Below are positions 2,797 through 58,640 of a stretch of 64,000 nt of DNA, in pieces. The position numbers and the translations under genes were made by a program. The notes under the pieces were generated by a model. It had not been told where the DNA came from and made no database searches. It saw only the letters and a list, made by a program, of their open reading frames with translations. This DNA comes from Dryococelus australis (Eukaryota > Arthropoda > Insecta > Phasmatodea > Phasmatidae): NCBI GenBank assembly GCA_029891345.1, contig CM057009.1:303615166-303679165 (forward strand), given 5' to 3'. Within the stretch, counting starts at the first letter, position 1. Every line of letters begins with the position of its first letter.

Positions 2797-4672
2797 AACG
2801 CAGCCGGGTGAGACACGAGACGAATGATGGCACACATACTCACTGGTAATATGGGCATCAGCAGTGCTTCCCAATCATTGCACTATTGAGACTAAGGGTT
2901 CTCAGGGATGCTGTGGGTTCTGTGTGTCCATCTCACCCGTGCGTACTTACAAACATGGAGGCAATACTAAACTTTTACTAAACATCACTTTGAAAATAAG
3001 CACTTACTAAAATACATGTGGCTAGGACACTGTCACTACTGTATAAAAGAGGTAAGTTCACTGTAGACTTGCTTTTATTGTTACTATGCGTACACATCAA
3101 CATGCCAATTAAATTATGATTATCTCAATCATGACTAGCCAATTCCACTTGGGTGCTCCCCTGCCCGCAATTGTGTAGTGCACGCCTAGATGGATGATCT
3201 CACCGAGGTGCGTGAAAGCACAATCTTCACAAGGGAAGAGGTCCGACAGCCGCTAGGGTGGATTGACGATTTTACCGTGAAGACAGGACATGGTGAAATA
3301 CAAATGAAAACACTTGATGAAACGTATTAACACATGTGACTACTCGTGGCATCACTTACGCAAACACGCCTGGGCTTGCCCGCCAGCACGTGGGTAGTAT
3401 GGTGACAGCCTGTACACAGATCCGGATTGGACGGAAGTAATTGCATCGTACACAAATTACAAAATGACATAAACCTTCAAAAGATAAAAAAGAAACAAGA
3501 TGGGGTATGAGATGAGTATTCACATTAAACACACACATGTTTGAAAACAAGCTTAAATGGCGTGGATGCCACTGGATGAAATTCGTAGCGGACCACATGG
3601 TGCAGGTGGACTTGCAATATTTCTGTGTGAAAACTGCAAATTAAATTTCAACAAAATATTATTCTGATAGAGAAAATTATTCTCTTTGAGATTGAAGTGA
3701 TTACAGGATTGTAACATGCCTGATGGCAGAAAAATCAAACATGAACCTGACCGCCTGGGCAAACACAAAAGCATCAATTTAAGTGGAAATTACATGGAAC
3801 CCTGACAAAAATTTAACATAGAACGCTGAATAAAATATTGCACATACGATATTATATAAATAAGTGCTTAAAACGCAATGATCGCATTGACATAGACTTG
3901 GCATAGGTTAGCCACGTGGTTGTACGTGAAATTGCCATAAAATAGTCAAACATGAAAATACCCTTAAAATACATATATGAAAACAAAACCCTTGAAATTG
4001 AACGTATCAATAATGAAGAAATTACAAAGAAACACCACTAACAGGTGGATAGCGCATGATTCAAGTTTCGCGGATCACATGACCTATATGACATCTTTCT
4101 CCTCATTCTCCTCGATTAAGTTAAAAATGCCACAAGGGCGAAATAAATTAGTTAAGTGGAAGTATAATGCTGGGGAAATGTCTGGCAAACATACACAAGC
4201 AAAGTTTCACCAGTATACTAAAAGTGCTATTGAAATCTACATCGGTGAACAAAAGGTTGTAGTGCATACGCATACACATAAGTGGAAGTGCTATGTACAC
4301 CGAGTAAAATATTTTATTATTGAAAATAAAATGGTACAAATAAATTAAATAATGTGTTACATTTTGTAATTTTCCTGTGGATTTTTAATCTTAATTTCAG
4401 TATCTCTTTATGACAGCTTTCATGCTGGTATATTAGTGTTCTTAATCTCGTTGCCGCAGGCACTTTGAATTTCATATCCAAACAATTTTAAGCAAACAAC
4501 AAACACTTTAAAAGCATTCTAAGACATATTAAACACTGCAAATACAAATATGAAACACATTTTACATTGAAAAATAGTATTTATGTGAAAGTTCAAAATA
4601 TTGGCCTCTTTGTGCACATGCAGGACACGTGATACATGTGTGGTGAGTGCCGCTGGCTGTTAGCCGGCATCA
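2797..4672 (-). mobile_element. Solo LTR of Gypsy element A family, inverted
   Basis: Read on the minus strand this stretch matches the LTRs at 6042-7976 and 13166-15101 over nearly its whole length. It begins with TGATGCCGGCT (reverse complement ending at 4672) and ends with the shared GTGTCTCACCC region near 2808. The sequence actgtaa occurs on both sides (2792-2798 and 4673-4679), as expected for a target-site duplication. No internal gag or pol is present, so it is a solo LTR left by LTR-LTR recombination. The exact ends are uncertain by a few bases because the duplication overlaps the LTR ends. Confidence 0.85.
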
Positions 4673-4679
4673 ACTGTAA

Positions 4680-6041: not shown

Positions 6042-7976
6042 TGATGCCGGCTGACAGCCAGCGGCGCTAGAGACCATGACGGTGCTCACGTGTCATGTGT
6101 TCCGCACGTGCGCAAAGAGGCCAATAACTTTGAACTTTCCTATAAATGTTAATTTCAGTGTAAAATGTGTTATGTTATCTTTACAGTGTTCAATATGTCT
6201 TAAAATGTTTTAAAGTGCTTGTACTAATTTTAATTGTTTGGTTATGAACATTCAAAAAGCCTGCGGCACCGAGATTAAGAACACTTAATAGTCTGGCATG
6301 AAGGCCATCACAAAGAGACATTAAAATAATATTGAAATTCATAACAAAATTATATAAATGTAAAAAAAAAAAATCTTATTTTATTTGTGCCATTTTATTT
6401 TCAATATAAAATATTTCACTTGCGTGCATAGCACTTCTGCTTATGTGAACCCCGCAGGCGGCCATGGTAGGTCCGTGTGACGCTTGTATCTGGACAGTCT
6501 GTCGAGGAGAGCTGGTGAGGTAAGACACTGTCACGTATGCACTATAACTTTTGTTCACTGATGTAGGTTTCCATAGTAAATTTAGTTTACCGGTTAATCA
6601 TTGCTTGCGTAGGTTTTTGCCAGACATTTTCGTCAGCATTATGCTTCAGCTTTACTAATTCTTACGCCCTTTGGATTTTTAACTTAATCGAGAAGAAGGG
6701 GGAGAAAGATGTCGGAGAGGTCAGGCGACCCGCACATTTTGAATCAGGCACCATCTGCCTATGTTTATGGCATTTCAGTGAAACTTCTGCATATTTGATA
6801 CACACAATTTTAAGAGCTTTATTTTTAGGATGTATTTTAAGGTAATTTTTGTGTTTGAATATTTTACTGCAACATCACGTATAACCACGTGGCAGACTGA
6901 AGCCAAGTCATTGGACACACCATTAGTGCATTTTAAGAGCTTATTTATATAACATTGTATGTGCAATAATTTATTTCAGGGTATTATGTCAGTTTTATTC
7001 AGGGTTCAATGTATTTTTCACGTAAATTGATGCTTTTTGTACTTGACCATGCTGTCACAGTATTGTTTGATTTCACTGCCATCAGGCATGTTACAAGCCT
7101 ATAACAATGCTAATCATAAAAAGAACCACGTGCTCAACACGAATAATACTATATTTGAATTTAGGTTGCCGTTTCCACGCTGAAATATTGCAATTTCACC
7201 TGCACCACGTGGTCTGCTATAAACTTCATACAGCAGCATCCACGCCACCTAAGCTTGTTTTCAAACGTGTGTGTTTTTATTGTGAATATTCATCTCATCT
7301 CCCATCTTATTTCATGTCTCATTCAAGGGTCTATGTAAGTGTGTAATTAGTGTACGGTGCAATTACTCCTGTCCTAGCTGGCTCTGTGTATAGGCCACCA
7401 CCACACTAACCACGTGCAGGAGGGCGAGCCCCAATGAGTTTGCGTTAGTGATGGCAAGTAATCACTCATGTTAATGTGTATTAAAGGTATTCATTTGTAA
7501 TTAATTGTGTCCTGTCTTCAGGGAAAAACCGTCAGTCCACCCTAGCAGCTGTCAGCCCTCTTCCCTTGTGAAGGCTGTGCTTTCACGCACCTCGGTGAGA
7601 TCATCCATTTAGGCATGCACTAGATTAATTACGGGTTGGGGAGCACCCAAGTGGAATTGGCTTGTGATGACAAAGATAACCATTTCATTGGCACGTTGAT
7701 GTGTATAAATAATATCAATTAAACAAGTGTATTGTGAACTCAATTTTTTATTCCGTAATGACAGTGTCCTAGCCACATATGTTTTATTAATTGTTTATTT
7801 CAGTGATTTTATTAAAAGTTTAGTATTGCCAAAATGGGTGAGATGGATACACAGAACCCACAACATCCCTGAGAACCCTGAGTCTCCATAGTGCGGTGAT
7901 TGGGAAGCACTGCTGGTTCCCAAATTACCAGTAAGTATTTGTGTCATTGTACGTCTTGTGTCTCACCCAATGGCAT
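6042..7976 (+). repeat. 5' LTR of element A
   Basis: Matches 13166-15101 directly and 2797-4672 in inverse orientation. It starts TGATGCCGGCTGACAGCC and ends around GTCTCACCCAATGGCAT. A TATA-like GTATAAATA lies near 7700, followed about 250 bases later by the LTR end; that would suit a promoter but is unproven. The open frames inside it are chance frames. Confidence 0.9.
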
Positions 7977-7980
7977 CAAT

Positions 7981-8000
7981 TGGCGTTCCCAAGAGGGGCC
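7981..8000 (+). promoter_or_regulatory. Putative primer binding site
   Basis: The stretch starting TGGCGTTCCCAAGAGGGGCC follows the 5' LTR by four bases and begins with the TGG usual for tRNA-primed elements. I cannot assign the tRNA with confidence. Confidence 0.35.
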
Positions 8001-8045
8001 AAGTGTGTTCATCCACGTCGTGTCATCCGCATCAACCGCGAGAAG

Positions 8046-9000
8046 ATGGCGGACACCACGCCTGATCGACCGCGAGAAGCCCTGAAGACATCCGCGTCGG
8101 CAACCGTGACACCCGCGAACGCAAGTTACTTGGACATGCCAATCAATCAGTGCACAAATTGTGGGAGATTGGGTGAAATTAACTTGTTTGAGGGAAGTAT
8201 GTGGGAGTAACCCTTATGTCAATGCACGTCCGACAATGTCTCTACGCAGTCAGAGCAACGCCTGTGTGCATGCACCCGATTTGACGGGGCGGGAACCAAG
8301 TGGGCGCAGTGCCAACAATGTAAGAAAGACTCAAATTTACGATGTATATTGCCTGCAGAGTTTACCACCTACCGCAACGGTGTTATAAACTGTGAATAGT
8401 GCCGCAAGACGAACTGTGCTGAGATCACGCCACCGCCAACACCAGAGGTGAAACCCACGCCGCCAGTAGTTGTTACTTACATGCCACAGGGCTTAACCGG
8501 GCAAGAAGAGCGCGATGTATTACTGCCAACTTTCACGGGACACAAATCAGAAGATCCGGGTACGTGTGCAGTGTGCAAAGAGAAATTGCATAGGCATCGC
8601 ATACATAGGGTTGACTGGACTGAGGTAACTGCCAACAGGTTAAGGGGAACCGCTGCCACATGGTGGAACTTGGTAAGGGACTATCGAGTCACGTGGGAGG
8701 AATTCTGTGAGATAGTGATAGGTCGATTTGACACCGACGGGGATGCTATACAGGCACAAGCATGACTGTACCATGAACAGCAACATGAATGTGAAGGCAT
8801 TGAGGAATTTATACAACATAAACTAGGCTTATTCAAGCGTTTGAACCCAGGTCAGCCGACACGCGGTGTTTTAGAATGCATTATGACATTGTCAACACCG
8901 GACATTAGGCCACATCTGAGAAGGGCAACAAGGGCAAGTGTCGAACAGTTTACGCGTGCAGAGTGTTTGTATGAACAGGACGTGCGAGCGGGACAGGCGT
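8046..9000 (+). pseudogene. gag: Gag of element A, with cysteine-rich N-terminus
   Basis: The Gag frame most plausibly starts at ATG 8046 (MADTTPDRP) and runs in one frame through in-frame stops at 8211, about 8398 and 8763. The N-terminal 125 codons contain a dense cysteine cluster (CTNC at 8151-8162, then LCQC, LCAC, CQQC, RC, and CE-stop-CRKTNC near 8390-8418), spaced like a zinc-binding domain. After a proline-rich linker (PPPTPEV) comes a capsid-like region with LRGTAATWWNL and TWEEFCEIV (about 8640-8715), typical of the retrotransposon Gag family. No CCHC zinc knuckle is seen between the capsid region and the protease. Gag should form the particle and bind element RNA. The stops make this copy defective. 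Confidence 0.75.
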
Positions 9001-12000
9001 ACCAATCCCCGAGATTGAACTTTCACACGTCAACATATACAATGCTGCCAGATGTTACGCGACCGCTGCCTGTTTACACCCGTGAGGCAGAACTGCGGAG
9101 ACAGAAACTTTCACCACAACAGGGGAAATGGTTACCAGGGCAACAGGTTGGAAAACTAATTCGGGAGGTTGGCGAAACTGCACCTGCACCAATCTCGTCA
9201 TCAAGTCGTACCATCCGCCTAATGAAGGATGCAAAAGTATTCCAGGTAACTGACAGTACCGTCAAAGAACTACAAGTATATGTTGAACTTGAAGGTAAAA
9301 ATGTCACAGCTGTAATTGACACTGCTGCTAGTCACAACGTTGTGCGTGAGGGTTTAGTACAAGCAATAACAACTAGGGTGCCCCCGAGACGTCTACAATT
9401 CGCTACCACCCACCACCAGGGAGAAGTGAAAAGTGTGATGCATGTAGCGGTAGGAATTAGAGAGCTGCGTACCAAGTGCGATGTCTACATTGTGCCGGTC
9501 TTGTGCGAAGAAGTGATTTGGGGACTGCCATGGCTTGTTGACAACAGCGCCGTGATAGAACTGCATCTGAATCATCTGCATGTAGGGACACGTGGCCGAT
9601 GGACTGTTTACGCTGTGGGAGCAACACCGCCAATAACAACTGCTGTGCCGCTTGCTGACTTCGAGCACAAGGTGCCCGCCACACATCAGCAATGTCTGCA
9701 ACATCTACTGGACCAGTACGCCAGTGTGTTCCACACTGAGGGGAAGCTGCACCGCACCGATGTCATGGAGTACGCGATCGTCACCACGCACGAGGACCCA
9801 GTGTACTCCAAGCCACGAGACCCAGGTATTTTCTTTCGCCGTGTCATCAACCAACAGGTATGTGAGATGCTCAACAATAATGTTGTTGAACCTACACAAA
9901 GTCTCTCTAATTCAGGTACTACCCTTGCTCCAAAGAAAGATAATGAATGGAGATTCTGTGTCGATTGTAGACCACTAAATAAGATAACCGTAAACATGCC
10001 GCCAGCAGTCATAAACATGAAAGACACTTTGTCAACACTAGGACCAGCTTCAGTATTCACGTCACTCGATTTAAAGTCTGGATACTGGCAAGTACCTATC
10101 CGCCCACAGGATAGAAAGAAAACAGCCTTTGCTACCCCAGATGGACTTTGATTTCAGTTTGTAGCCATGCCATTTGATTTAAAGTGTACCCCTGCAACGT
10201 TTCAGAACTTAATGGTTAATGTATTAGATGGATTTATTGGAGACTTTTCGATGGCGTATTTGGATGATGTACTTGTTTGGTCTAACAGATGGAATGAGCA
10301 TTTGCACCATTTGACCCTTGTGTTTGAATGGCTTGAACGTAATAAAATTACATGCAATGTGGAAAAGTGTAAGTTGGGTATGAGTAGAATGGAGTTTCTA
10401 GGGCATTATGTAACAGAAAACAGACATGAACCAGAACAACAACACATACGGGACATTCAAAACAAACCCACAACCAGATCACGTAAACAAGTCAGGAAGT
10501 TTTTTGGCTTATTTAATTGGTTAAGGGAATTTGTCCCAAACTTTTCCATAATCACTGCACCGTTAACTGCTTTGTTGAGTGAGAAACGTAAATTTGTCTG
10601 GGCACCTCAAGCCGATTGAGCATTTCAAGACATTAAAATTGCATTTCAGAACTGTAATCCTCTGTCTAGATTCAACCCAGAATTATCTATTGTCATACAA
10701 ACAGATGCCAGTCAAGAAGGCATTGGGGCCGTGCTGTATCAGGAGGGAACACACAGGGAAAAACATATCATCAGTTATCACAGTGCAAAGTTCGGAGACA
10801 CAGAACGTAAATATCATGTTAACTAACAAGAATGTTTGGCCATTGTACATCCATTGCGGAAGTACTGGCCGTACTTGCTAGGAAGGCAGTTCACACTCAA
10901 AACTGACAACCAATGCCTTGTATGGTTAGAGGGAATGCATAACGGGAAAAGTAAACTTGCCCGCTGGGCGCTGTTACTGCAAGAGTATGATTTCAAGGAA
11001 GAACACTTGGTGGGGAAAACCAACTAGCTCGCGGACGCCTTGTCCAGAAATCCTTGTCTGAATATAACAGTAACTGACGATGCAGAGTAGGAAGATGCGC
11101 TACCGCCATGCCGTGCAATACCAACTGCAGAAACACAAATCCTTGTTGTACAAAACATTGCTGCCACACCACCTGGTGAACTTGTTTCGTTGAATGTACG
11201 TGATGTGTTAAAAGAGGTACACACCGCACAAGAAAATTCCCCAGATGCTGCGCAACGCCGACAACACTGTGCCACATGCTACACAGAACACTGGAGGGTG
11301 GTGGACAGGGAAATACAAACAAAACCACCTGGTAACTGTGCAGGATGGCGGACATATGTACCGAGAGAGAAACGGGAACTTGTGTTAAAATACGTATACG
11401 ACAGTTTGGAACATGGACATCCAGGATCCGAGCAGACACAAAAGAACGTGCAGAAATGTTTTCACTGCCCAGGGATTCATGGAGATGTCAGGAAATATGT
11501 ACAGAACTGTGTCACATGTAACACCCGTAAGCCACGGAGAGTAGACGGTGACGCTCCACAACAACCAAGGCCGCCAACTCAGCCATTCAGAACCATAGCT
11601 ATCGACATGATGGTCCCATAACCACGTACGAAAACTGGGAAAAGATTTCTTGTTTTTGCCACAGATTGGTTTACCCGTTGGACCGAAGCATTTCCAGTCA
11701 GCAATGTTCGTGCGCATATCGGGGCACAAATAATGCAGAACGAGTTTTTCCCGAGGTAGGGGCACCCCGAATATTTGTTGACGGACAATAGAACACAGTT
11801 TGTAGGGTGAAAATGGAGGGAGTACTGTACCAGGTGGGGAACAGAACACCGTACTACCCCAGCCTACCATCCCAGGGCTAACCCAACCAAGAGACGAAAC
11901 CAGGACGTAAAAATCCAATTATGTGTCCGGTTAGGCAAGGACCATACTAGGTGGGCCGAATTGATCTCGGAGATAATGTTTTGCCTGCGGAATAGAGTGG

Positions 12001-12086
12001 ATGCGGCAACCGGCAAAACACCCGCCGAGATGGTACAAGGTCGTGAACTCCATGCCCGCACCCCGCGAAAACCCACCCAGATCACC
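9001..12086 (+). pseudogene. pol: Pol of element A: protease, RT, RNase H, integrase
   Basis: Continues in the same frame as Gag. Protease: VIDTAASHNVV (catalytic Asp codon 9318-9320; D-T-A where D-T/S-G is usual). RT: FCVDCRPLNK and FTSLDLKSGYWQVPI, then a TGA at 10149, then AMPFDL and the YLDD box at 10257-10268. RNase H: QTDASQEGIGAVLY (about 10695-10740) and TDNQCLVW, ending LADALSRNP near 11045. Integrase: zinc-binding HGHPG...CVTC (about 11410-11520), first Asp in AIDMM (11604-11606), second in LTDNRTQF (11784-11786). Lys (11889-11891) sits 35 residues later, where the catalytic Glu is expected. In-frame stops include 10149, 10617, 10824, 11025, 11088, 11619, 11757 and 11808. No frameshift is needed until about 12055-12086, where the frame slips. 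Confidence 0.92.
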
Positions 12087-13122
12087 TGAACAAATCGCCA
12101 AACACCAGGTGCAGGTACATGAAGAAGCCAGGGCAAACCAGCTCAGCGATAGTAATGTATGGATACCAGATAGCAAGAGGCCACCACCCGAACTTGTACC
12201 CGGGATGTAAGTGTATGTACAAGAAAACCCGTGATCGGCCGGAACTAAGAAATACTGTGCTGGACTGGCACCAAAATGGACAGGGCCAGTGAGAGTACTG
12301 GAAAAGATAGGAAATTCCACATATCTAGTGAAGTTGGGACCTAGACGTGTCACGAAATGGCACCGTGACAACCTGCGGATAGCCCAACCGCCTGTAGGGA
12401 AGAGAGGCAAGGAGACAATGTTACGCCCAATACCGCACCGTGCTCGGAGAATTTCACCAGGGAGTTCACAGGAAAACAACAACACGTACACTGAGGAGAA
12501 CCACACTAACATGGGAACACCCAGCCAAAATAGTGAACTGCTATTTGAGGGTTTTGCACTGACTGAACACTCAACACCTAGTAATGAGGAGGTGGAAACA
12601 AGTAGTACCGCCACACCATTTCTGGGTTTTTCTGTTAATACAGGTAAAAACACAAAGAATCAGAGTGAGTTTAAGGGGTTTCGAAGTGTACACGAAGAAA
12701 GTGGTAACACCAGTGCACATGTAAATTTGAACACAACCAGTGCCAGTGAGTTGAGTTTTAAGGGGTTTCCCCAGGGCACAGCTGAATTTGGTTGTTACCA
12801 AAGTATAAACGTAAATCTTGATACCACATGCAAAGGCGAGATGCCTTTTAGGAGCTTTCCAGTTCCCGCAGGGGAGAGCATAGTAGGGCAAGAGAGTTTG
12901 AAAGGGTTTGGGGAAACTAGTAGGGCAGTAAGTGTGACACCAAGTGTCAACAAAGTGCAACACAGCATTCACAAGAGGCGAGCTGAGTCACCACCACGTA
13001 CCCACATTGTTGTTCCTGCCTACAACCCCCCCCCTGCAAACGCCGAAGAGATCGATGACCTCCAAGGCCATGTTTTCTTTGCCCTCAATCGGCAACCAGC
13101 CGAGCAGAGCCTGCCAGAGTAA
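12001..13122 (+). pseudogene. Integrase C-terminus (GPY/F) and long FxGF-motif tail
   Basis: After the frame slip the new frame reads ENPPRSPEQIAKHQVQVHEE, a stop at 12208 and another near 12232, then KYCAGLAPKWTGPVRVLEKI and VTKWHRDNLR. That is the GPY/F chromatin- and DNA-binding module found behind Gypsy integrases. From about 12400 to the stop at 13120 a stretch of about 240 codons is completely open, unlike the rest of pol. It is rich in Ser, Thr, Asn and Glu, so probably disordered, and carries six spaced F-x-G-F-like motifs. The tail ends with a basic HKRR and a short HIVVPAYNPPP segment before the purine tract. It has no transmembrane segments, so it is not an envelope. Its function is not known to me. 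Confidence 0.7.
12544..12909 (+). repeat. Six-copy F-x-G-F motif array in the integrase tail
   Basis: Motifs at 12544-12555 (FEGF), 12619-12630 (FLGF), 12670-12681 (FKGF), 12757-12768 (FKGF), 12847-12858 (FRSF) and 12898-12909 (LKGF). Most are preceded by Ser/Gly-Glu (SELLFEGF, SEFKGF, SELSFKGF, GEMPFRSF, ESLKGF) and are 17-30 residues apart. Copies four and five share a longer unit: VNLNTT...SELSFKGFP and VNLDTT...GEMPFRSFP. The array is therefore a degenerate protein repeat. Confidence 0.8.
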
Positions 13123-13152
13123 TGTTGTGTTGTTCGCACCGTCTTGGCCTTC

Positions 13153-13162
13153 GAGGGAGGGG
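13153..13162 (+). promoter_or_regulatory. Polypurine tract
   Basis: GAGGGAGGGG directly before TCATG and the 3' LTR start: the usual place and composition for the plus-strand primer of an LTR retrotransposon. Confidence 0.75.
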
Positions 13163-13165
13163 TCA

Positions 13166-15101
13166 TGTGATACCGGCTGAAAGCCGGCGGCGCTCGAGCC
13201 CATGACGGCGTTCACATGTCACGTGTTCCACACGTGCACAAAGAGGCCGATAATATTGAACTTTCCCATAAATGGTAATTTCAGGATAAAATGTGTTATG
13301 TTGTCTTTATAGTGTTCAGTATGTCTTAAAATGTTTTAAAGTGCTTGTACTAATTTTAATTGTTTGGTTATGAATATTCAAAGTGCCTGTGGTGCCGAGA
13401 TTAGGCACACTTGATATTCTGGCATGAATGCCATCACAAAGAGACATTAAAATAATATTGAAATTCATAACAAAATTATATAAATGTAAAACAATATATA
13501 AATTAATTTGTGCCATTTTATTTTCAATATAAAATATTTTACTCGATGGGCATAGCACTTCTGCTTATGTGAACCCCGCAGGCGGCCATGATAGGTCCGT
13601 GTGACGCTTGTATCTGGACAGTCTGTCGAGGAGAGCTGGCGAAATAAGACACTGTCATGTGTGCACTACAACTTTTGTTCACTGATGTAGGTTTCCATAT
13701 TAAATTTAGTTTACCGGTTAATCTTTGCTTGCATACGTTTTTGCCAGACATTTTCACCAGCATTATGCTCAGCTTTACTAATTCTTACGCCCTTGAGGCA
13801 TTTTTAACTTAATAGAGAAGAAGGAGGAGAAAGATGTCGGAGAGGTCAGGCGACCCGCACATTTTGAATCAGGCACCATCTGCCTATGTTTATGGCATTT
13901 CAGTATAACTTCTGCATAATTGCTACATGCAATTTTAAGAGCTTTATTTTTATGTATGTATTTCAGGGCAATTTTCGTGTTTGAATATTTTACTGCAACA
14001 TCACGTATAACTACATGGCCAACTGAAACCAAGTCATTGTAATGCCATAATTGCATTTTAAGAGCTTATTTATATAACATCGTATGTGCAATCATTTATT
14101 TCAGTTTTTTTGACAGTTTTATTCAGGGTTCAATGTATTTTTCACGTAAATTGATGCTTTTTGTACTTGATCATGCGGTCACAGTAATGTTTGATTTCAC
14201 TGCCATCAGGCATGTTACAAGCCTATAACAATGCTAATCATAAAGAGAACCACATGCTTAACACGAATAATACTATATTTGAATTTAGTTTGGCATTTCC
14301 ACACAGAAATATTGCAATTTCACCTGCACCACGTGGTCTGCTACGAACTTCATACAGCCACCTAAGCTTTTTTCCATTCACTTGTGTGTTTATTGTGAAT
14401 ATTCATCTTGTGTCCCATCTTATTTCATGTATCATTCAAGGGTCTATGCAATTGTGTAATTAGTGTACGGTGCAATTACTCCCGTCCTAGTGGGCTCTGA
14501 GTATAGGCAGTCACCGCACTAACCACTTGCTGGGGGACAAGCCCCGACGAGTTTGCGTTAGTGATGCCGAGTAATCGCTCATGTTAATGTGTATTAAGGG
14601 TATTCATTTGTAATTCACCATGTCCTGTCTTCAGGGAAAAACCGTCAGTCCACTCTAGCGGCTGTCGGCCCTCTTCGCTTATGAAGGCTGTGCTTTCACG
14701 CACCTCGGTGAGATCATCCATTTAGGCATGCACTAGATTAATTACGGGTTGGGAAGCACCCAAGCGGAATTGGCTAGTCATGACCGAGATAACCATTTTG
14801 TTGGCACGTTGATATGTATAAACAATATCAATAAAACAAGTGTATAGTGAACTCAATTTTTTATTCCGTAATGACAGTGTCCTAGCCACATATGTTTTAT
14901 CAATTGCTTATTTCAGTGATTTTATTAAATGTTTGGTATTGCCAACGTGTTTGTAAGTATGGGTGAGATGGACACACAGAACCCACAACATCTCTGAGAA
15001 CCCTGAGTCTCAATATTGCATTGATTGGGAAGCAACGCTGGTGCTCAAATTACCAATAAGTATTTGTGTCATTGTTCGTCTCGTGTCTCACACGATGGCG
15101 T
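13166..15101 (+). repeat. 3' LTR of element A
   Basis: Direct copy of 6042-7976 with substitutions and small indels (for example a gap around 14350-14360 relative to 7225-7250). It begins TGTGATACCGGCTGAAAG and ends near GTCTCACACGATGGCGT. Confidence 0.9.
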
Positions 15102-27652: not shown

Positions 27653-28929
27653 CTGTAACATTCATATAATGTACAACAGTCCTTGGTCTCTTTAGTGTTT
27701 TTTACAACTTACCATAAATCATATTTTGTTATTCTACTATTATGGACATGGTAAAGTAAACAGCAAAACTTCAATGTATTTCAAGAAGGAATGGAATCTG
27801 AATGTGAATGATAACTAGACATTAGTTGTTTTGAGCTAAGACGTTCGGGATGAACATAGATTCTTCAGGGGTTGTATTGGTGGGTCAGTGAGAGGTTTGA
27901 TGAAGGTAACTGATGAGGTCGGGCATAAGCTAAACAGTTATTTAGGATTAGCAACAGTTCTGTGATTCCAGGGCACAATTAAACACACTAAGGAGACGTT
28001 TTCGAACACTCCCCAATGCTTCTGCAGTAGTATAATTCGGTAGGTATGAAAATTAAATGCTAACATAACTGAACATGAATAAGTATATGGAAAAAATTCT
28101 TCTAGAGAGGGCCAGTACCCAAAGTGAATGTTAGGCACTTAAATAAGAACCAAGTATCTAAGTTTGTCTGAATGATATATTCAGAACACAGTATACATGG
28201 CAATGTTATTTACACAGGCACATCATACAAGGCTTGTTGTGAACTGGCATGGAAAACGTATCATGAGGCAACATGCAACAAAACTCTGGGGTGTGATAGG
28301 TCAGCTGAGATGACCATGTTCCTTAGGGCAAAAAATAAAAAAATAAAATACATCCTAGTAATTTATGCTTATTAGCAACACTAACGATGGTTGGAGTTTA
28401 AGAGGTTGAATGTGTTCAATGTGTCAGTCAGTAAGTCTGTGGAAAGCAGACTGTCTGGGCGGCATGAGATGGCTACTGAGCTCGGCAAGCATATTGCTTC
28501 TTCTGCATATCAGAATAAAAATGGCCATGTGACTTTCAGCAAGTATTTTCAGTGACTGCTCAGATGCACACTGCGCCTGCTTATTAAAGAAATAAATTAA
28601 AAAACAAAAAGCAATATCTATTGAAATTAACACTGTAAACACAAATAAGATCATTTCAGTAAATAATATATATTTATGAACACTGACGTTTGTGACCATT
28701 TTCTATTTAGATATAAATGATTAAGTTTAGTCTAATCTTCAGAGGTCATTATATTTGTTTATATTGTCTTGAGTGTCATGGAAGTGACACATATTTTTCT
28801 CATATTTCTCCCCATTATTATACAAGTGCAGCACTTATATAATGCTTATCTTTTACATATGTGCAAGATTTGAATTCTTGCATGTTGTTATGTATCACAG
28901 GAATGAAACAGTCTGAAATTACATTTCTA
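27653..28929. other. Noncoding, AT-rich
   Basis: No recognisable gene or repeat boundary. Confidence 0.5.
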
Positions 28930-29240
28930 TAATTTTCTTATGAATTTTAGTATAATTTTAATGTCTCTTAGTGATTGTGTTCATGCCGGAGTATTAAGTG
29001 TTCTTAATTTTGGTGCAGCGGGCACTTAGAATATTCATAACCAAACAATTAAATTTAGTACTAACACTTTAAAACATTTTAAGATATATTAAACACTGTA
29101 AAGACAATATAACACATGTTACCCTGAAATTAACATTTATAGGAAAGGTCAAAATTATCAGCCTCTTTGCGCACGTGCAGAACACGTGACATGTGAGCGC
29201 CATCATGGGCTCTAGAGCAAATTGCTGATAGCCGGCGTCA
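28930..29240 (-). repeat. Truncated LTR fragment of element A family
   Basis: The minus strand matches the first 310 bases of the element A LTR (start TGACGCCGGC at 29240; GCACGTGCGCAAAGAGGC shared). The remainder of the LTR is missing. It is more diverged than the three long copies. Confidence 0.8.
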
Positions 29241-30152
29241 GTTTTTTAATCATCCTTTATGGTGATTCTATTAGAACTTATACGAGTGTTTTGCATCATG
29301 ATAGATGGCACTTTAGCATCTGTGTTAAAATTTTGTTTTGTTATAAAAAGTTACTGTTAGAGAAAATCTGTTCTACATGACTTTAATGCAATTTATATAA
29401 TGTGGGAAGAGGTAATTTAAATATGTTGCCAATATTAATTATCAATATAATTTGGGACCACTGCATGGCCATTTGATTGTATCGCATCTGACATTTGGGC
29501 AAAATTGTCCAGTCACGCTAACTTCTGGGTAGCTGATTTTAACTTCTTTCTTTGCTCTTCTAAGAATCATTATGTGAAGTTACAATAATACATTTTTTGG
29601 CAAATTATGTTGTAGAGCTTTGCATTACCACCTCTGGTGAGTGTATTTAACTTGTTTATTTTATTTTATATATGAATTGTGTGTTTATTTTCTCCTGTTT
29701 TGTATTTTTCATAGATTTAACTTTGTAGTGTGATCCATCTTACTACATGGCTTGAATACCTAATCTGGCATCTTGCTGTTCGAAATACATTGCTGATATC
29801 CAGCCCAGCCTCATTGCAAAGGTGTTTCATTGTGGCTGTTGATTTCCTCACCAGCTTAATGGCAGTGATGTTTCACAGTGGCTATTGATTTGCTAGCTGC
29901 TATTTGCATTCAGGAAAGCCATACTTTCTTATTTATTTGGTTGCATCCGGAGTTTCTAATCTACTTTTCGGACTTAATAATATAAAAGAAGGCATTCAAA
30001 ATAATAATATAAAAATAACTGGACATTTCAGCCTCTTTTTAAAAATTTATGTGGTATTAATAAAGTAAAAAAAATCGGAAAATTAATATTTTATATATAT
30101 TACTATAAGCTTAATATTAATTATTTTAATTTTGTGAAGAGAAAAGAAACTC
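29241..30152. other. Possible 5' LTR of the next Gypsy relic
   Basis: No gene. It lies directly before a primer-site-like sequence and a Gag relic, so an LTR is expected here, but no second copy is visible in the window to confirm it. Confidence 0.3.
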
Positions 30153-33663: not shown

Positions 33664-34800
33664 GGTCTGGCGGGTCATGACCCGGTTCAAAGATGTGTTA
33701 CTGCATGAACGAGTTTAGTAACACCTTTACAGAATGCACAGCCATGTGTGGGCCACATCAAATGCCCCCCACATGGAGAGACCACTGGTGCGATGTAGCG
33801 ACCTCTTGTAGCGCTGGTTACTCTGTAATGCAGCAGGAGGGGTGGGATGGCACAAGAGGTGCTGCCTCAGCCTGTAAGTATGGAATTGCTAGTTATTTAC
33901 CTCATGAGACATCTCGGGCAGTCGCCGATGGCGTTGAGAATGTGGGTCATCAGGAAGTGCTGCAGGTGCCCCTGGCACAGGGCCTGTAGGAGGGTGCATG
34001 CCGGCAGCATGTGTTGGCACGTGTGAGCCCTGGCTGGCACGAACTAGGTGCCTGAAGCGGGGTGGTCACCCACGGCATTGCTGTTGTCAGTGGGCCGGGC
34101 GGTGATACACCGATGAACAGGTAGAGGCGGCAGAAGAGCTGATCCTGTCTACCTGGTGTAACTGTTGCCACTCTTTGTTGCTGTGTACAGGGGGGTTGCA
34201 CTTCCACCCACATGTCATTGATAAGCTCTGCCGCTGACCACTAAACTGCAGTGGTGGTAGGTAGCTGCTCAAGGGCTGGAAGGCCGTGAATGTCGTGGGG
34301 TGACATTTCCCCCACATGTCACTGATGTCATCTGTTGCGACCACTATGTGTTGTTTGTACGAGCGTGGCAGCAGGTGGCGTGGCAGCTGGGAAGCCATGA
34401 AAATCGAGGAGTGACTGCCATCGCGATGTATGACTTCTACTTCGGGTATTGCTATGGCTTAGGTTAGATGGAAAAATGTCAATAACTTCAGCCTCTGCAG
34501 CACTACCTAAGTTTCGGTAAAACTTTGTCTCGCCACTCTGACTGCACTGAGTGTTTGACCGATCACTGTTCCTACCATCGGACATCCAGGTTGTGTTGAT
34601 ATTTGCAGGTGTCGTCTTGTTTGATGTGGTAGGGTCATTGTTTTGGTTTTCTGTTATGTCCTCTTGCTTGTCAGGTGGACTAGTTTCTTCAATGTCGTCA
34701 GGGTTGGAAGCAGCGCGGATATCATCGTTGTGGACTTTACACCCCTTTCTCGGCCCAATCAGTACTAGGTACAATGTGAGACTGATTTCCTCTAGAATTC
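33664..34800 (-). pseudogene. Element B GPY/F module and FxGF tail
   Basis: Minus-strand FCAGLAPKWTGPHRILEE and CKVHNDDIR (34730-34850) match the element A GPY/F module closely. The tail after it is acidic and polar (DDIEETSPPDKQEDITE, then Ser/Asn-rich) and reaches SLLDFHGFPAATP at about 34385-34410 before its first stop. Beyond that the frame is broken but keeps related peptides (PHDIHGLPALEQ). Same architecture as element A: integrase, GPY/F, long disordered tail with F-x-G-F. Confidence 0.7.
34190..34430 (-). repeat. Degenerate tandem repeat carrying the FxGF motif in element B
   Basis: Minus-strand units of about 105-110 bases repeat. GTGGTCGCAACAGATGACAT (about 34347 down) pairs with GTGGTCAGCGGCAGAGCTTA (about 34240 down), and both continue ATGACATGTGGG-like. 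The motif codons are FHGF (34391-34402) and its decayed counterpart IHGL (34280-34291; FTAF if shifted by one base). Confidence 0.6.
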
Positions 34801-35860
34801 TGTGGGGCCCGGTCCATTTGGGGGCAAGTCCCGCACAAAAGTTCTGTTTGGCCGTTGACTAGTAGTGCGCACACACGTAAACATAATCACCTTGTAACAA
34901 GGGCTTAGGTGGTAATTTAGTTTCCGGCAGCTATTTTTGAACACAACAATTTTTGTTTTTGCGCACTTCGTGATGATGCTGTCTTCTTTCTGCTTCGCTT
35001 ACCTCAGAGTCTGCAGCATCTGAGTTAGTGTCTGGTGCAAGGCAGGCAAACTCTCCTGGGGATGCCAGGCCTGCGCCATACAACTCAGCAGGAGATTTCC
35101 CTGTGGCTTTGTTGGTGCGGTTATGTAAACAAAAAGTATTGTCTGGTATCTGCTGTGCCCATGTTGCATGGTCTTTGTTGACTCTAAGGTGCAGCTGTGC
35201 CTTTACCTCCTAATTTTGGCATTCGGTCAGGTTTGCACGTGCGTGGTAAATGTCAGTTGTGTGGTGTTCGACGTGCCAATCCATACACAAACCTCGTCAA
35301 CGCGGTCTTGAGAACTGGGTGGCATTGTCACTTACAAGTGTTTTGGGGTATCCCCAGCAGAGAAAAAACTCCTTTTTCAAAGTTGCGGCAATGAGACATA
35401 TGCATGCGCTCTGCAGTATATACAGTTCACACCAATGTGTAAGCAAATAGATTACCACAAGTATGAAGGTTTTTCCCATCTGATGAGCGTGGATATGGGC
35501 CCATGAGGTCTAGGACAATAGATTCAAAGGATGTTGCAGTAGCCTCGGTTGTTGTTGGGCGTTCCTACCTGATCTCCATGTTTTGTAAACATTACATGCA
35601 TGACACTTGCTTACATACTCTCTAACCTCCTTCATGAGGCAGGGCCACAAATACGATTATGTAATGTTATGCACTGTTTGTGCAACGCCGGGGTGTCCGA
35701 ATAGCTTATTGTTATGGGTGGTGTGAATAACAGTAGTGTGCGCTCCTGGCGGCACATAGAGACACCACCAACCTCCTGACCGAATGTTACGTGTCTCGAG
35801 ACGGTTGTCAATTACCCGTCACCCTTCTAACACATCCTGTCTACACTGGGCTTTTATTTA
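34800..35860 (-). pseudogene. Integrase of element B
   Basis: Minus strand: zinc-binding FGHPGVAQTVHNIT and CHACNVYK (35590-35700), first catalytic Asp in VLDLMGPYPRSSDGK (about 35495), a frame slip in the A-run near 35480, then TFILVVIYLLTHW and KTLVSDNATQF (35300-35480; second Asp). HARANLTECQN follows with Glu (35222-35224) at the place where element A has Lys. ATWAQQIPDNTFCLHNRT and TGKSPAEL (35080-35170) are shared with element A. Everything 5' of the integrase (RT, protease, Gag) is missing. Stops are present. Confidence 0.85.
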
Positions 35861-51382: not shown

Positions 51383-53065
51383 TATATCCACCTTCCCCTT
51401 CTGGCCACCCCTGGGTGAGTTTAAAATGTGAAAGGTAAAGAGTGTAGGGGAAGGGGAAGAGGAAGGAGAGCTTGTGGAATGAGAGATAGTTGAAGCTTTT
51501 TTCCAATGAGTCACTAGCAGTGAAGCGAGTCAGGTCACTAGCGTGGTGTTCTGTTTAAAGGAAAGATAATATTTGGAACCAGTGTACAAATACCATCTCA
51601 TAATTTTCTGTTACTGACTGTTATTTTGTGGTTGCGAGGACAAACAAAAGAAAGTAATTTTTTAATGTAGAATAGCAAGTGTCGATGTATAATTTTTGGA
51701 CGCAGATAACTCGTCTACCAAAGTAACAAAAATGGTAAGTTATAAAGATTAATTTGATTCTCTTATTGAGAAATTTAAGTTACCTTATCTTGGTACAGAG
51801 TCCAATTAAAATGACTCTATTTCTTGAGTTGTATCATATTAGTATCAGCGATCAGTGTTCGAATTGATGAAAATGTAGAACCAGTGGGAATTATTTGTTA
51901 ATATTTCAAAATTCTTTTTTTTAAGGTTTATTGTTAAGAAGTTATTTATCACTATAATGGGATTTTCAACATCCTTTTTAATCACTATGGCACTTGATAT
52001 AGTATTTTAAACTTTGGTGCAGTGCAATTTTAGGTTATTTAAACACATATTGTAATAGCGGAAATTTTCTTTCCCCTGTTAGGGGAGATGATAGAAATGC
52101 AGCAGTTGGGGAAAATATCCTATTAAAAAAGGTGGTGGGGACTTTTCAATTCGAACACTGAACACTAGCCAAAGGATAATAAACACAGTATGCTAAATCA
52201 CATTTATTACTAATTACTTTTTGAAACCATTTTAGTTTGTTACATGTACTTATTGTACACATCTTGTCAGTGACAGTACCCGGTTGTGGCCGACCAGGAA
52301 TCAAATGCGGATCACCATCAGATCATATTTCTAATAAAAAGTATTAACTTCCCATATCTTTATGATTTGAAAGTGGAAGTCGCATGCATGAGCCACAACA
52401 CCAACCGAGACCCCTCAGTTATCTATAATAATTGGTAATAAATCTAACTCTTCAGCCTAAAGATTAACATTTCACATTTGAAATAATTGGACATTTAAAA
52501 AAATGTTCATTTTAGTTTTACTATATAAAGGGGTTTCTTTGACCACTTTAAACCAGTTCTGAAACAAAACATTATATACCATATTTGTATTTAATTTTTT
52601 TGAACTGTTTTAAAGTCAAAATAATTCTTGGGGCAACATACATGGCACGACTACCAATAAAATGTAGAACATATGTAATTCATAGAGTGATCAAAGTACC
52701 ACTACTAGTCATAGAAACCCCCTTCTGCAGTACTATTTTTAAACATTTATAAAACACAGAGTTAACAATAGTAATTTGCAATATTTTGGAAAGTAATGTA
52801 ATGAAAATGTTATATTCTTGCATTTTACCTAACTTACAAAACACTTTTTAAAAAAATCTAAATATTTTCTATGGCCTAATTAATGGCAGAAGAATTTTTT
52901 TACAACAGATAAACTGACTGGATGGTATAATTTTCTCTTTTTAAATAATTAATACAATCTGTATGGTAACATTTCAATTTGCAGGAAAATATTATTATGT
53001 ATTTAGAAATTTTGTATGATTTCACAGACAAGTCCCCATTCATCAAAAGGAATTAAAGAGGTCCC

Positions 53066-54057
53066 ATGTTGCATACTGGGATTGACAACTACTTCAAGCG
53101 TGTGCCCAAAGAACAAAAGGAGGTTGTATCCAGTTCACAGTTTACAAATTCATCGACTCTTGTTCCTGAATCTTCAGATTTTTGCAGTCCTGTAGTGTCA
53201 AGCGCTGCTGGTACATCTTCTTTACGTGCAATTTCAGATATAAGTAGACCATCAAATGCAGAAAAACAAGGAGCTACAAATGACAAACGTATTTACATTG
53301 GAAAAACTGTGGATGATTTTACGAAGAGGAATTTTCTACAAGATCACTGGAGTCGCTCAGAAGACTATGTTTTTCCGTACACCATCAAAAAGCTAAAAGG
53401 AAAGGAAGTGCATTGCCATCCAATACACCGGCACTTGGAGATGTTTCAGTGGCTTGTGTTCTCTGATATCTGCCAAGGATTATTTTGTAAATACTGTGCC
53501 TTGTTCGTACTAGGCCAGGTCGGAGGGTTGCATAAGACTGTCCAGTTAAGTCAGTTGGTTACTAGGCCTTTTACTCAGTTTAGTAAGCTGTTAAGGAATT
53601 ATGGGTATTTGAACATGCATGCAGAAAAAACGTACCACAAACATGCAGTAGCAGCAGGAAAACAGTTTCTTAATTGCTTATCAGATCCAGTGAAAAGCAT
53701 TGACAACCAAGTATATACAAAATGCGTAGAGCGAGTCAAAGAAAATAGGAAATTTTTGATCTCCATTGTTGAAACAGAAATTTTTTTGGGGCTTCAGAAC
53801 ATTTCCTTCCGTGGCCATAGGGATGATGGCCATGTGTTTAGTTCAAATGGAGGCTTTTGTGACAATGAAGGAAATTTTCGAGAACTTGTACGCTTTCGTA
53901 TCAACAGTGGTGACAACAAGCTTGAGCAATATTAGGAAAATACTTCAGCGCGGACAATGTACACAAGCAAAACAATTAAAAATGATTTGATTTCATGCTG
54001 TGGTGATGAAATAATGTCAGTTACTATCAGAAGAGTTAAATGTGCAAAAATATACAG

Positions 54058-57628: not shown

Positions 57629-57906
57629 TACATAAGACTTTCCATCCTTGAGTCACAGTGTGTGGCTAACTGAAGTTGGTTATGACATCAGTTGGGCTGT
57701 ACAATGAAGCTTAACATTAGCGCCTTGGACAGATTGACTCCTAAAGTCAAAGTACGCAGTTATTAGTATGCAACATGGTGGCAACAGTAAACTCATTAAA
57801 GAACAATGTGTGTAAACAACTAAGTGCAAACAAAACATAAAATGTGTTCATATTACACTTCAAGGTGATTTAATAGATGTTTAAAGCCTAAAAACGGTAA
57901 TGGGTA

Positions 57907-58640
57907 ATGGTGAAACAAATCAGTGGGATTACAGATCAAACCAATAGAAATGTTAAGATATGGAAACAAACACATTTCTTCATGTATTTAATGGGCAACA
58001 AATTGGATGACATTACAACCATGTTTAAAAAACCAGAAACAGGTTTTTGGACATACAAAGAACTTTCCAAAGCATTTTATAAATATTTCAAACCAAGAGT
58101 GAACATAATTTTTAATGCTTTAAATTCAATTTGTGTGTGTAGCAATAGAGGGGAAAGTGTGGAGGAATTCTTCACATCACTACATAATCTTGCTGAGGCT
58201 TGCAAGTCTGGACCAGTGAAAGATGAACTTATCCAGGATACGATCACGATTGACATGTGGGGCATTGCCATCAATGAAAAAATGCAATTAAAAAGCAAAT
58301 TCACACATAAAGAGGCAGTAAATATGTATCATCAAGGGGAACTGCAGTTATCACAAACATAACAGTTACGAGAAAAGCAGACAGTGGCAAATGTTCTGAG
58401 AGTTGTACATAAAAACAGGGACATGTCAGGGGAACAATCAGATGTGACTTTTACATTCAAAGGGAAAACTATTAACTCTGGAGCATGCCAAAAAGACTTC
58501 CCATTGAAAACAAGCCAGTCTCACACACGTCAGCAGCCTAATTGTGAAAATTGTGGTAGGTTTCTTGAGGACAAGGTAAATTGCCTTGCCCACAATGCAA
58601 GACAGTGCAATAAGTAAAGAACGTTCATCACATTAAGGAA
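57907..58640 (+). pseudogene. gag: Gag relic of a third Gypsy lineage
   Basis: TGFWTYKELSKAFYKYFKPR, VEEFFTSLHNLAEACKSG and KDELIQDTITIDMWGIA (57907-58362) form the Gag helix block with a DELIxDxIVxG step. Next come EKMQLKSKFTHKEA, then a knuckle-like CENCGRF...CLAHNARQCNK (58545-58615). A stop at 58360 separates capsid and knuckle. The order agrees with the pol relic downstream. Confidence 0.8.

What the first reader, a model, noticed from the sequence alone, without database searches (positions are those of the whole stretch)
12544..12909. Gypsy integrase tail with six F-x-G-F motifs: possible host-factor docking array
Behind the GPY/F module of element A a fully open, polar tail of about 240 codons carries FEGF, FLGF, FKGF, FKGF, FRSF and LKGF, mostly after Ser/Gly-Glu, 17-30 residues apart. 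An F-x-G-F core with acidic residues before it in a disordered region recalls, from my knowledge of that family, the short motifs that bind TFIIS N-terminal-type domains, including the integrase-binding domain of LEDGF/p75. LEDGF is the tether that steers lentiviral integration to transcribed genes. A retrotransposon carrying a multivalent version could tether its integrase to transcription-elongation factors. This is inference; only the motif array is seen.
Basis: partly seen in the sequence, partly recalled or inferred. Interest (0 to 1): 0.78.

Follow-up and report, generated by a model that had tools for sequence, protein, structure and literature searches.

The report
Conserved F-x-G-F array on gypsy integrase
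An old jumping gene in this genome, and a distantly related second group of jumping genes, carry short repeated protein motifs on the tail of their integrase that selection appears to have kept while the surrounding tail drifted, so the tail is probably a docking strip for another protein, perhaps one that marks active genes.

Summary
The array is real: four exact F-x-G-F plus FRSF and LKGF at 12544-12909, against 0.06 FxGF expected in shuffled tails (0 of 20,000 reach four). The window copy is dead, but the genome holds at least 133 copies of this tail with the six sites at stable spacing. In element A, variants shared by many copies are mostly silent inside FxGF (ratio 0.16) and neutral in linkers (1.0); a stricter clade-filtered test showed no difference. 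Element B, a second gypsy in the window (34328-34858, minus), and its relatives carry one or two units around F-x-G-F on otherwise different tails; there the F, G and F codons give pN/pS 0.24 against 0.85 for the tail, and 0 of 106 equally spaced triples are as low. So a selected motif array is supported. The LEDGF/TFIIS-N partner is not shown: the strict consensus D/ExExFxGF is met by 0 of 6 motifs, the middle residue is mostly basic in A, and the host search for an IBD protein did not complete. Best reading: a multivalent integrase-tail docking array, with a LEDGF/JASPer-type domain the leading candidate.

The parts
6042..7974 (+). 5' LTR of element A
   Evidence: 89.4% identical to 13168-15099; K2P 0.097 over 1916 columns
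8766..10151 (+). Protease and first part of reverse transcriptase of element A (broken copy)
   Evidence: Pfam gag-asp_proteas 2.4e-6, RVT_1 1.1e-10
10152..10619 (+). Second part of reverse transcriptase, element A
   Evidence: Pfam RVT_1 9.6e-14
11091..11621 (+). Integrase zinc-binding (H2C2) region, element A
   Evidence: Pfam PF17921 1e-16
12235..13122 (+). End of pol: SH3-like (GPY/F-type) module and long polar tail
   Evidence: open 295 codons; PF24626 SH3_Tf2-1 at 19.3 bits, below its cut-off of 30; AlphaFold2 mean pLDDT 31, no helix or strand predicted in the tail
12544..12555 (+). motif 1 FEGF
   Evidence: F 113, G 111, F 121 of 133 copies
12619..12630 (+). motif 2 FLGF
   Evidence: F 126, G 112, F 122 of 133
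12670..12681 (+). motif 3 FKGF
   Evidence: F 113, G 111, F 126 of 133
12757..12768 (+). motif 4 FKGF
   Evidence: F 123, G 112, F 127 of 133
12847..12858 (+). motif 5 FRSF (minority state at the third position)
   Evidence: F 119, G 113 (S 5), F 124 of 133
12898..12909 (+). motif 6 LKGF
   Evidence: L 117, G 118, F 113 of 133
13168..15099 (+). 3' LTR of element A
34328..34858 (-). Element B: end of pol, SH3-like module and a different tail
   Evidence: 53% identity over 53 aa to A in the SH3-like part; integrase zinc-region match at 35818-35513, 31% over 102 aa; no Pfam family at E 0.01
34391..34402 (-). Element B FHGF (SLLDFHGFPA), the conserved unit of the B-like families

Best explanation
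The tail is a disordered docking strip on the integrase end of pol that presents several short linear motifs (F-x-G-F, usually with an acidic residue just before) to a repeated or shared partner. Multivalency lets weak single contacts add up. The most likely partner class is a helical TFIIS-N/LEDGF-IBD-type domain of a chromatin or elongation protein (JASPer/LEDGF, IWS1 and similar), which would tether the integration complex to transcribed chromatin. Shown here: motif array, family-wide conservation, signs of selective constraint on the motif in two lineages. Inferred: that the tail stays on mature integrase, the partner, and the targeting outcome.
For: Array far above chance. Array length is 139 or 140 aa in 118 of 133 copies, so no live minisatellite. 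Core columns more conserved than random tail columns (permutation p 0.0006), and 0 of 18 core columns against 26 of 92 linker columns have a second residue at 10% or more. Shared variants, non-CpG, 13 carriers for transitions and 7 for transversions: FxGF 3 nonsynonymous/7 synonymous (ratio 0.16) against linker 51/19 (1.0), Fisher 0.011. Element B lineage: F, G, F codons pN/pS 0.24 (bootstrap 0.14-0.39) against tail 0.79-0.91; its SH3-like module 0.41. A second unit some 30-40 residues on appears in 10 of the 20 loci L134-L153, in six of them in another frame. 20 further B-like tails hold 11 FxGF in their open parts against 0.043 expected, spread over 9 of the 20; these tails are related, so not 11 independent events. 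FxGF is the published core of LEDGF-IBD ligands, with an insect example. Precedent for a disordered integrase tail as chromatin tether: MLV integrase and BET proteins (PMC4176367, passages).
Against: No binding evidence. Strict consensus D/ExExFxGF met by 0 of 6. Motif 2 has an acid within four residues before it in only 23 of 131 copies. Middle residue is mostly K or R in five of six A motifs, and R, H or C in 32 of 39 B-like copies; MLL1 has a leucine there. The clade-filtered selection test showed no significant difference at any of three settings (for example FxGF 3N/3S, linker 32N/17S, p 0.66). Low carrier thresholds (4-5 copies) give weaker ratios (0.59-0.93), and at 20 or more carriers the counts are too few (0/3 against 19/14, p 0.095). 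In B-like copies the Gly is less conserved than the Phe (28 against 37 and 34 of 39), several other tail columns are as conserved, and by pN alone 2 of 106 triples are as low. Only one genome was examined. The host's IBD/TND proteins were not found or tested (the search did not complete).
Confidence: 0.48

Rival explanations
1. A constrained multivalent motif array, but for another partner: a different host domain, a nuclear-import or condensate factor, or the element's own Gag or integrase (assembly rather than targeting).
For: The selection data say the motif matters, not to whom it binds. The motif differs from the strict IBM consensus (0 of 6), has a mostly basic middle residue in A and often a following proline (motifs 3-5 and B-like units), and the partner was not tested.
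Against: The F.GF core with a nearby acid in a polar, probably disordered tail is the published signature of IBD ligands. Other motif classes scanned for are absent or not above chance: FGxF, FG, FxFG, GLFG, NPF, PPxY, PTAP, LC8 TQT, LxxLL, LIR-type, PxIxIT, WxW.
Confidence: 0.35
2. The array has no function: a tandem duplication relic in a tail that tolerates anything.
For: Motifs 1-3 and 4-6 look like an internal duplication; the linkers are near neutral (ratio about 1); the tree is star-like and the clade-filtered test was not significant.
Against: Core constraint in A by frequency, MK-type, permutation and bootstrap tests and separately in the B-like lineage, whose tail has little reliable similarity to A's. 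Array length is stable.
Confidence: 0.07
3. Aromatic 'stickers' of a FG-nucleoporin-like or phase-separating tail that helps the complex enter the nucleus or gather with Gag.
For: Spaced Phe pairs in a Ser/Thr/Asn/Glu-rich region without predicted structure.
Against: FG dipeptides are near chance (2 against 1.1 expected), no FxFG or GLFG. In B-like copies the low pN/pS sits on F, G and F and not on the neighbouring codons, which stickers would not need.
Confidence: 0.1

Closest known systems
LEDGF/p75-IBD binding motifs (IBM) and TFIIS-N-domain interacting motifs (TIM): MLL1, IWS1, Drosophila JIL-1
   Same: F-x-G-F core, acid just before (D or E at -1 in 23 of 39 B-like copies, as in JIL-1 DFxGFDE), in a region without predicted structure; IWS1 carries several TND-interacting motifs in its disordered N-terminus
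   Different: Strict consensus D/ExExFxGF not met; middle residue mostly basic in A; proline often follows; here on a retrotransposon integrase and up to six per molecule; binding unknown
MLV (gammaretroviral) integrase C-terminal tail binding BET ET domains
   Different: Different sequence and partner; a 28-residue tail, not an array of about 140 residues
Lentiviral integrase and LEDGF/p75
   Same: Proposed host domain would be the same (IBD)
   Different: HIV-1 uses a pocket at the catalytic-core dimer interface (PMC4176367, passages), not a linear motif in a tail
Ty3 chromodomain integrase and other yeast LTR elements
   Same: LTR-element integrase used for target choice through host factors (PMC8632968, passages; PMC5408687, passages)
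   Different: Folded chromodomain and Pol III factors for Ty3; no FxGF array in the passages seen

Membership tests
Ty3/gypsy (Metaviridae) LTR retrotransposon | Paired LTRs around protease, RT and integrase | tested here: met
   LTRs 6042-7974 and 13168-15099; protease, RVT_1, H2C2. Catalytic core region 11600-12230 is broken in all three frames; the Ty3/gypsy clade itself was not tested by a tree
GPY/F-type integrase C-terminal module | SH3-like module after the catalytic core | tested here: inconclusive
   PF24626 E 0.0013, 19.3 bits, below cut-off 30; W-T-G-P and a shared 53-aa block in A and B
IBM/TIM (LEDGF-IBD or TFIIS-N ligand) | F-x-G-F core | tested here: met
   4 of 6 exact in the window copy; each core residue in 111-127 of 133 copies for motifs 1-5, motif 6 with L first; B-like unit 1 exact in 24 of 40
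IBM/TIM (LEDGF-IBD or TFIIS-N ligand) | Strict published consensus D/ExExFxGF | tested here: not met
   0 of 6; a single acid within four residues before, in 5 of 6
IBM/TIM (LEDGF-IBD or TFIIS-N ligand) | Lies in a disordered region | tested here: inconclusive
   AlphaFold2 with a 2-sequence alignment: mean pLDDT 31, no helix or strand in the tail. The SH3-like part is also low, so the model is weak evidence
IBM/TIM (LEDGF-IBD or TFIIS-N ligand) | Binds an IBD/TND domain through the two Phe | not testable with these tools
   no complex prediction or assay; host PF11467 search did not complete
Selected short linear motif | Constraint on motif, drift of linkers | tested here: met
   the clade-filtered version of the test was not significant

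The most novel reading that the evidence does not exclude
A clade of insect-type gypsy retrotransposons, independently of lentiviruses, targets active gene bodies by plugging multivalent FxGF motifs on the integrase tail into LEDGF/JASPer-type domains, imitating cellular partners of that domain.
Probability: 0.35. Interest if true: 0.85.

Novelty: new variant of a known kind. Interest (0 to 1): 0.66.

Why it matters
Tethering of integrase to host chromatin or transcription factors is known for lentiviruses (LEDGF), gammaretroviruses (BET) and a few yeast elements. A metazoan gypsy clade carrying a conserved array of LEDGF-ligand-like motifs would suggest that an endogenous retrotransposon converged on the same class of host domain by copying the cellular ligand, in multivalent form. 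It gives a directly testable peptide-level prediction and about 300 matched fossil copies in this assembly (133, 166) whose positions could be compared with genes.

Tried and rejected
Protein database searches with the A tail and with a nine-row profile of eight A tails and the B tail found no relative at E 0.01. Viral-contig scans with the tail, an RT piece and the A/B alignment found none. PDB sequence searches: for A one weak unrelated match (MEX3C, E 0.34), for B none at E 1. Ongoing tandem-repeat expansion was rejected: TRF finds no array at 7000-15000 and the array length is stable. CK2-site enrichment, known for regulating IBMs from my recall, was not seen (3 against 3.9 expected). FG-repeat, FGxF and other motif classes rejected. 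Clade-filtered selection test: not significant at three settings, too few events in a star-like tree. Literature: I saw listings only (titles and starts of abstracts) for (0 papers; 1; 0; 13 listed of 16; 6 of 7; 9 of 10; 12 of 12; 6 of 13; 10 of 31) and 130 (25 of 39 that hold the string FxGF). No listed title or abstract start concerns FxGF motifs in a retrotransposon integrase; the unlisted ones were not seen, and only open-licence PMC papers are covered. Passages were read in eight papers, no paper whole. Cermakova et al. 2021 and Tesina et al. 2015 were not read (recalled; the latter is not held). The host-protein search (PF11467 in the own genome) was asked for 22 times and never answered.

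Full report
OBSERVATION. The ORF 12235-13122 (+) is open over 295 codons and ends element A's pol. It begins with an SH3-like, GPY/F-type module (Pfam SH3_Tf2-1 at 19.3 bits, below the cut-off of 30) followed by a polar tail. Shuffling the tail gives 0.06 FxGF on average and never four in 20,000 tries. The element is old: its LTRs (6042-7974, 13168-15099) differ by K2P 0.097, and protease, RT, zinc finger and catalytic core sit in broken frames. So the window copy itself is a fossil and its two irregular motifs need relatives to be read.

RELATIVES OF A. The window's assembly (3.4 Gb, 646 contigs, unnamed) could be searched. It gave 133 scored matches of the tail, a lower bound by the tool's own words, at 64-82% identity apart from the window copy itself. 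I fetched all 133 and aligned them by codon. The six sites are family features: F, G and F each in 111-127 of 133 copies for motifs 1-5. Motif 6 is LKGF by family norm (L in 117, F in 3). FRSF and FEGF are minority states of the window copy (S in 5, E in 10 of 133). The array has 139 or 140 residues in 118 of 133 copies, so it is not an unstable minisatellite, and 116 of 133 copies keep four or more sites intact if F, L, Y or M is allowed first. The array probably arose by internal duplication: motifs 1-4, 2-5 and 3-6 pair at 71, 76 and 76 codons with similar flanks (18, 12 and 2 of 1,000 flank shuffles score as high), and 4-5 also match (0 of 1,000).

SELECTION IN A. The copies are mostly a star (terminal branch sum 10.7, internal 1.05 substitutions per site), so most differences are post-insertion decay. 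Variants carried by many copies are the informative ones. With thresholds that I judge recurrent mutation rarely reaches (13 carriers for transitions, 7 for transversions, CpG sites left out; the medians are 4 and 2), FxGF codons have 3 nonsynonymous and 7 synonymous shared variants (ratio 0.16), the linkers 51 and 19 (1.0), the SH3-like module 4 and 6 (0.29); Fisher FxGF against linker p = 0.011. At 15/8 the FxGF ratio is 0.08 (p = 0.017), at 10/6 it is 0.42 (p = 0.043). With a plain threshold of 7 the figures are 6/12 against 89/29 (p = 0.0007), and FxGF shared against singleton variants (6/12 against 48/7) differ at p = 2.5e-5 while the linkers do not (p = 0.09); 3 of 10,000 sets of six random four-codon blocks are as low. 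0 of 18 core columns but 26 of 92 linker columns have a second residue at 10% or more. Overall pairwise pN/pS is 0.63 (bootstrap of 60, 0.53-0.70) for FxGF and 0.94-1.04 for linkers; 44 of 5,000 random block sets are as low. Against this: at thresholds of 4 or 5 carriers the ratio rises to 0.59-0.93, at 20 carriers the counts are too few (p = 0.095), and if variants must also be clade-clustered on the tree the difference vanishes (3N/3S against 32N/17S, p = 0.66; 8/6 against 62/31, p = 0.55; 0/0 against 12/5). I read that as lack of power, but it is a null result. I ran several thresholds and did not correct for that.

ELEMENT B AND ITS RELATIVES. A second gypsy in the window, on the minus strand (34328-34858), shares 53% identity with A over a 53-residue SH3-like block and little that aligns reliably in the tail. 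Its tail holds one FxGF, SLLDFHGFPA (34391-34402), against a shuffle probability of 0.004. The genome search with B gave 166 matches, not all listed, down to 37% identity. I used 40 of the 166: the window copy, the 19 next loci returned, and 20 places that I picked for long open frames (19 of the 20 without a stop inside the match) before looking at their motifs. The motif stands out: F 37, G 28, F 34 of 39 copies with a residue there, L at -2 in 36 of 39, D or E at -1 in 23 of 39 (N in 9); unit 1 is exact F.GF in 24 of 40. The F, G and F codons have pN/pS 0.24 (bootstrap of 200, 0.14-0.39) against 0.79-0.91 for tail residues 61-150, 0.41 for the SH3-like module, 0.91 and 1.06 for the immediate flanks; with the middle codon included the ratio is 0.46. 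0 of 106 other triples with the same spacing have as low a ratio; by pN alone 2 of 106 do, and several other single columns are as conserved. Of the loci L134-L153, 10 of 20 show a second unit some 30-40 residues on, six of them in another frame, as after later frameshifts. Of the 20 picked places, 9 hold 11 FxGF in their open tails against 0.043 expected, 5 more hold one only beyond a stop, 6 hold none. So a related but distinct lineage keeps the same motif, in one or two units instead of six.

WHAT IT IS AND HOW IT MAY WORK. Shown: a family-wide array of F-x-G-F motifs, with signs of selective maintenance in two gypsy lineages while linkers drift. That is the signature of a short-linear-motif docking region. 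Inferred: that it stays attached to integrase (the tail is the pol C-terminus), that it binds a folded host domain, and which one. The best lead is the LEDGF-IBD/TFIIS-N family. Its ligands share FxGF: the consensus D/ExExFxGF is quoted in PMC8022399 (passage), and in Drosophila the JIL-1 kinase, whose JASPer-binding region holds DFxGFDE, binds the LEDGF domain of JASPer, which reads H3K36me3 (PMC6877644, passages). IWS1 carries several TND-interacting motifs in its disordered N-terminus (PMC13175633, passages). A disordered integrase tail as tether is known from MLV and BET proteins (PMC4176367, passages). Against a simple filing: the strict consensus is met by 0 of 6 motifs, motif 2 usually lacks a preceding acid (23 of 131 copies have one), the middle residue is mostly K or R in five of six A motifs and R, H or C in 32 of 39 B-like copies, and proline often follows. 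The R/H/C mix in B looks like decay of CGN codons; that is my inference. Other motif classes tested are absent or near chance. AlphaFold2 with only two sequences gave mean pLDDT 31, compatible with disorder but weak, since the SH3-like part is low too.

LIMITS. No relatives turned up in the protein or viral collections. The search for the host's own IBD protein did not complete. Insertion sites were not compared with genes. No title or abstract start in the listings of my literature searches concerns FxGF in a retrotransposon integrase, but these cover open-licence PMC papers only and several listings were cut.

VERDICT. Partner unproved. New variant of a known kind (integrase-tail tether), interest 0.66; if the LEDGF-type partner is true, about 0.85.

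Noticed in passing
window 2805-4673 (minus): A relative of element A's LTR at about 77-79% identity, probably a solo LTR of an older subfamily.
   Followed up: no
window 28919-29246 (minus): A 328-base piece at 85% identity to the start of element A's LTR, another solo or truncated LTR.
   Followed up: no
window 57901-59430 (+): An open frame (57901-58362, no Pfam hit) that reads gag-like to me, followed by a weak RT match at 59206-59430 (26% to element A): possibly a third LTR element.
   Followed up: no
window 53057-53935 (+): 292-codon open frame without a Pfam match.
   Followed up: no
L135, L137, L144, L149 and six others of L134-L153: B-like elements carry a second unit around FxGF (for example SPLDFHGFPA) some 30-40 residues after the first, lying beyond the stop of the window's B copy.
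   Followed up: partly
B-like loci, residue 154 (middle of FxGF): Middle residue is R, H or C in 32 of 39 copies, a pattern that looks like CpG decay of an arginine codon; with K/R in element A this hints at a shared basic middle position.
   Followed up: partly
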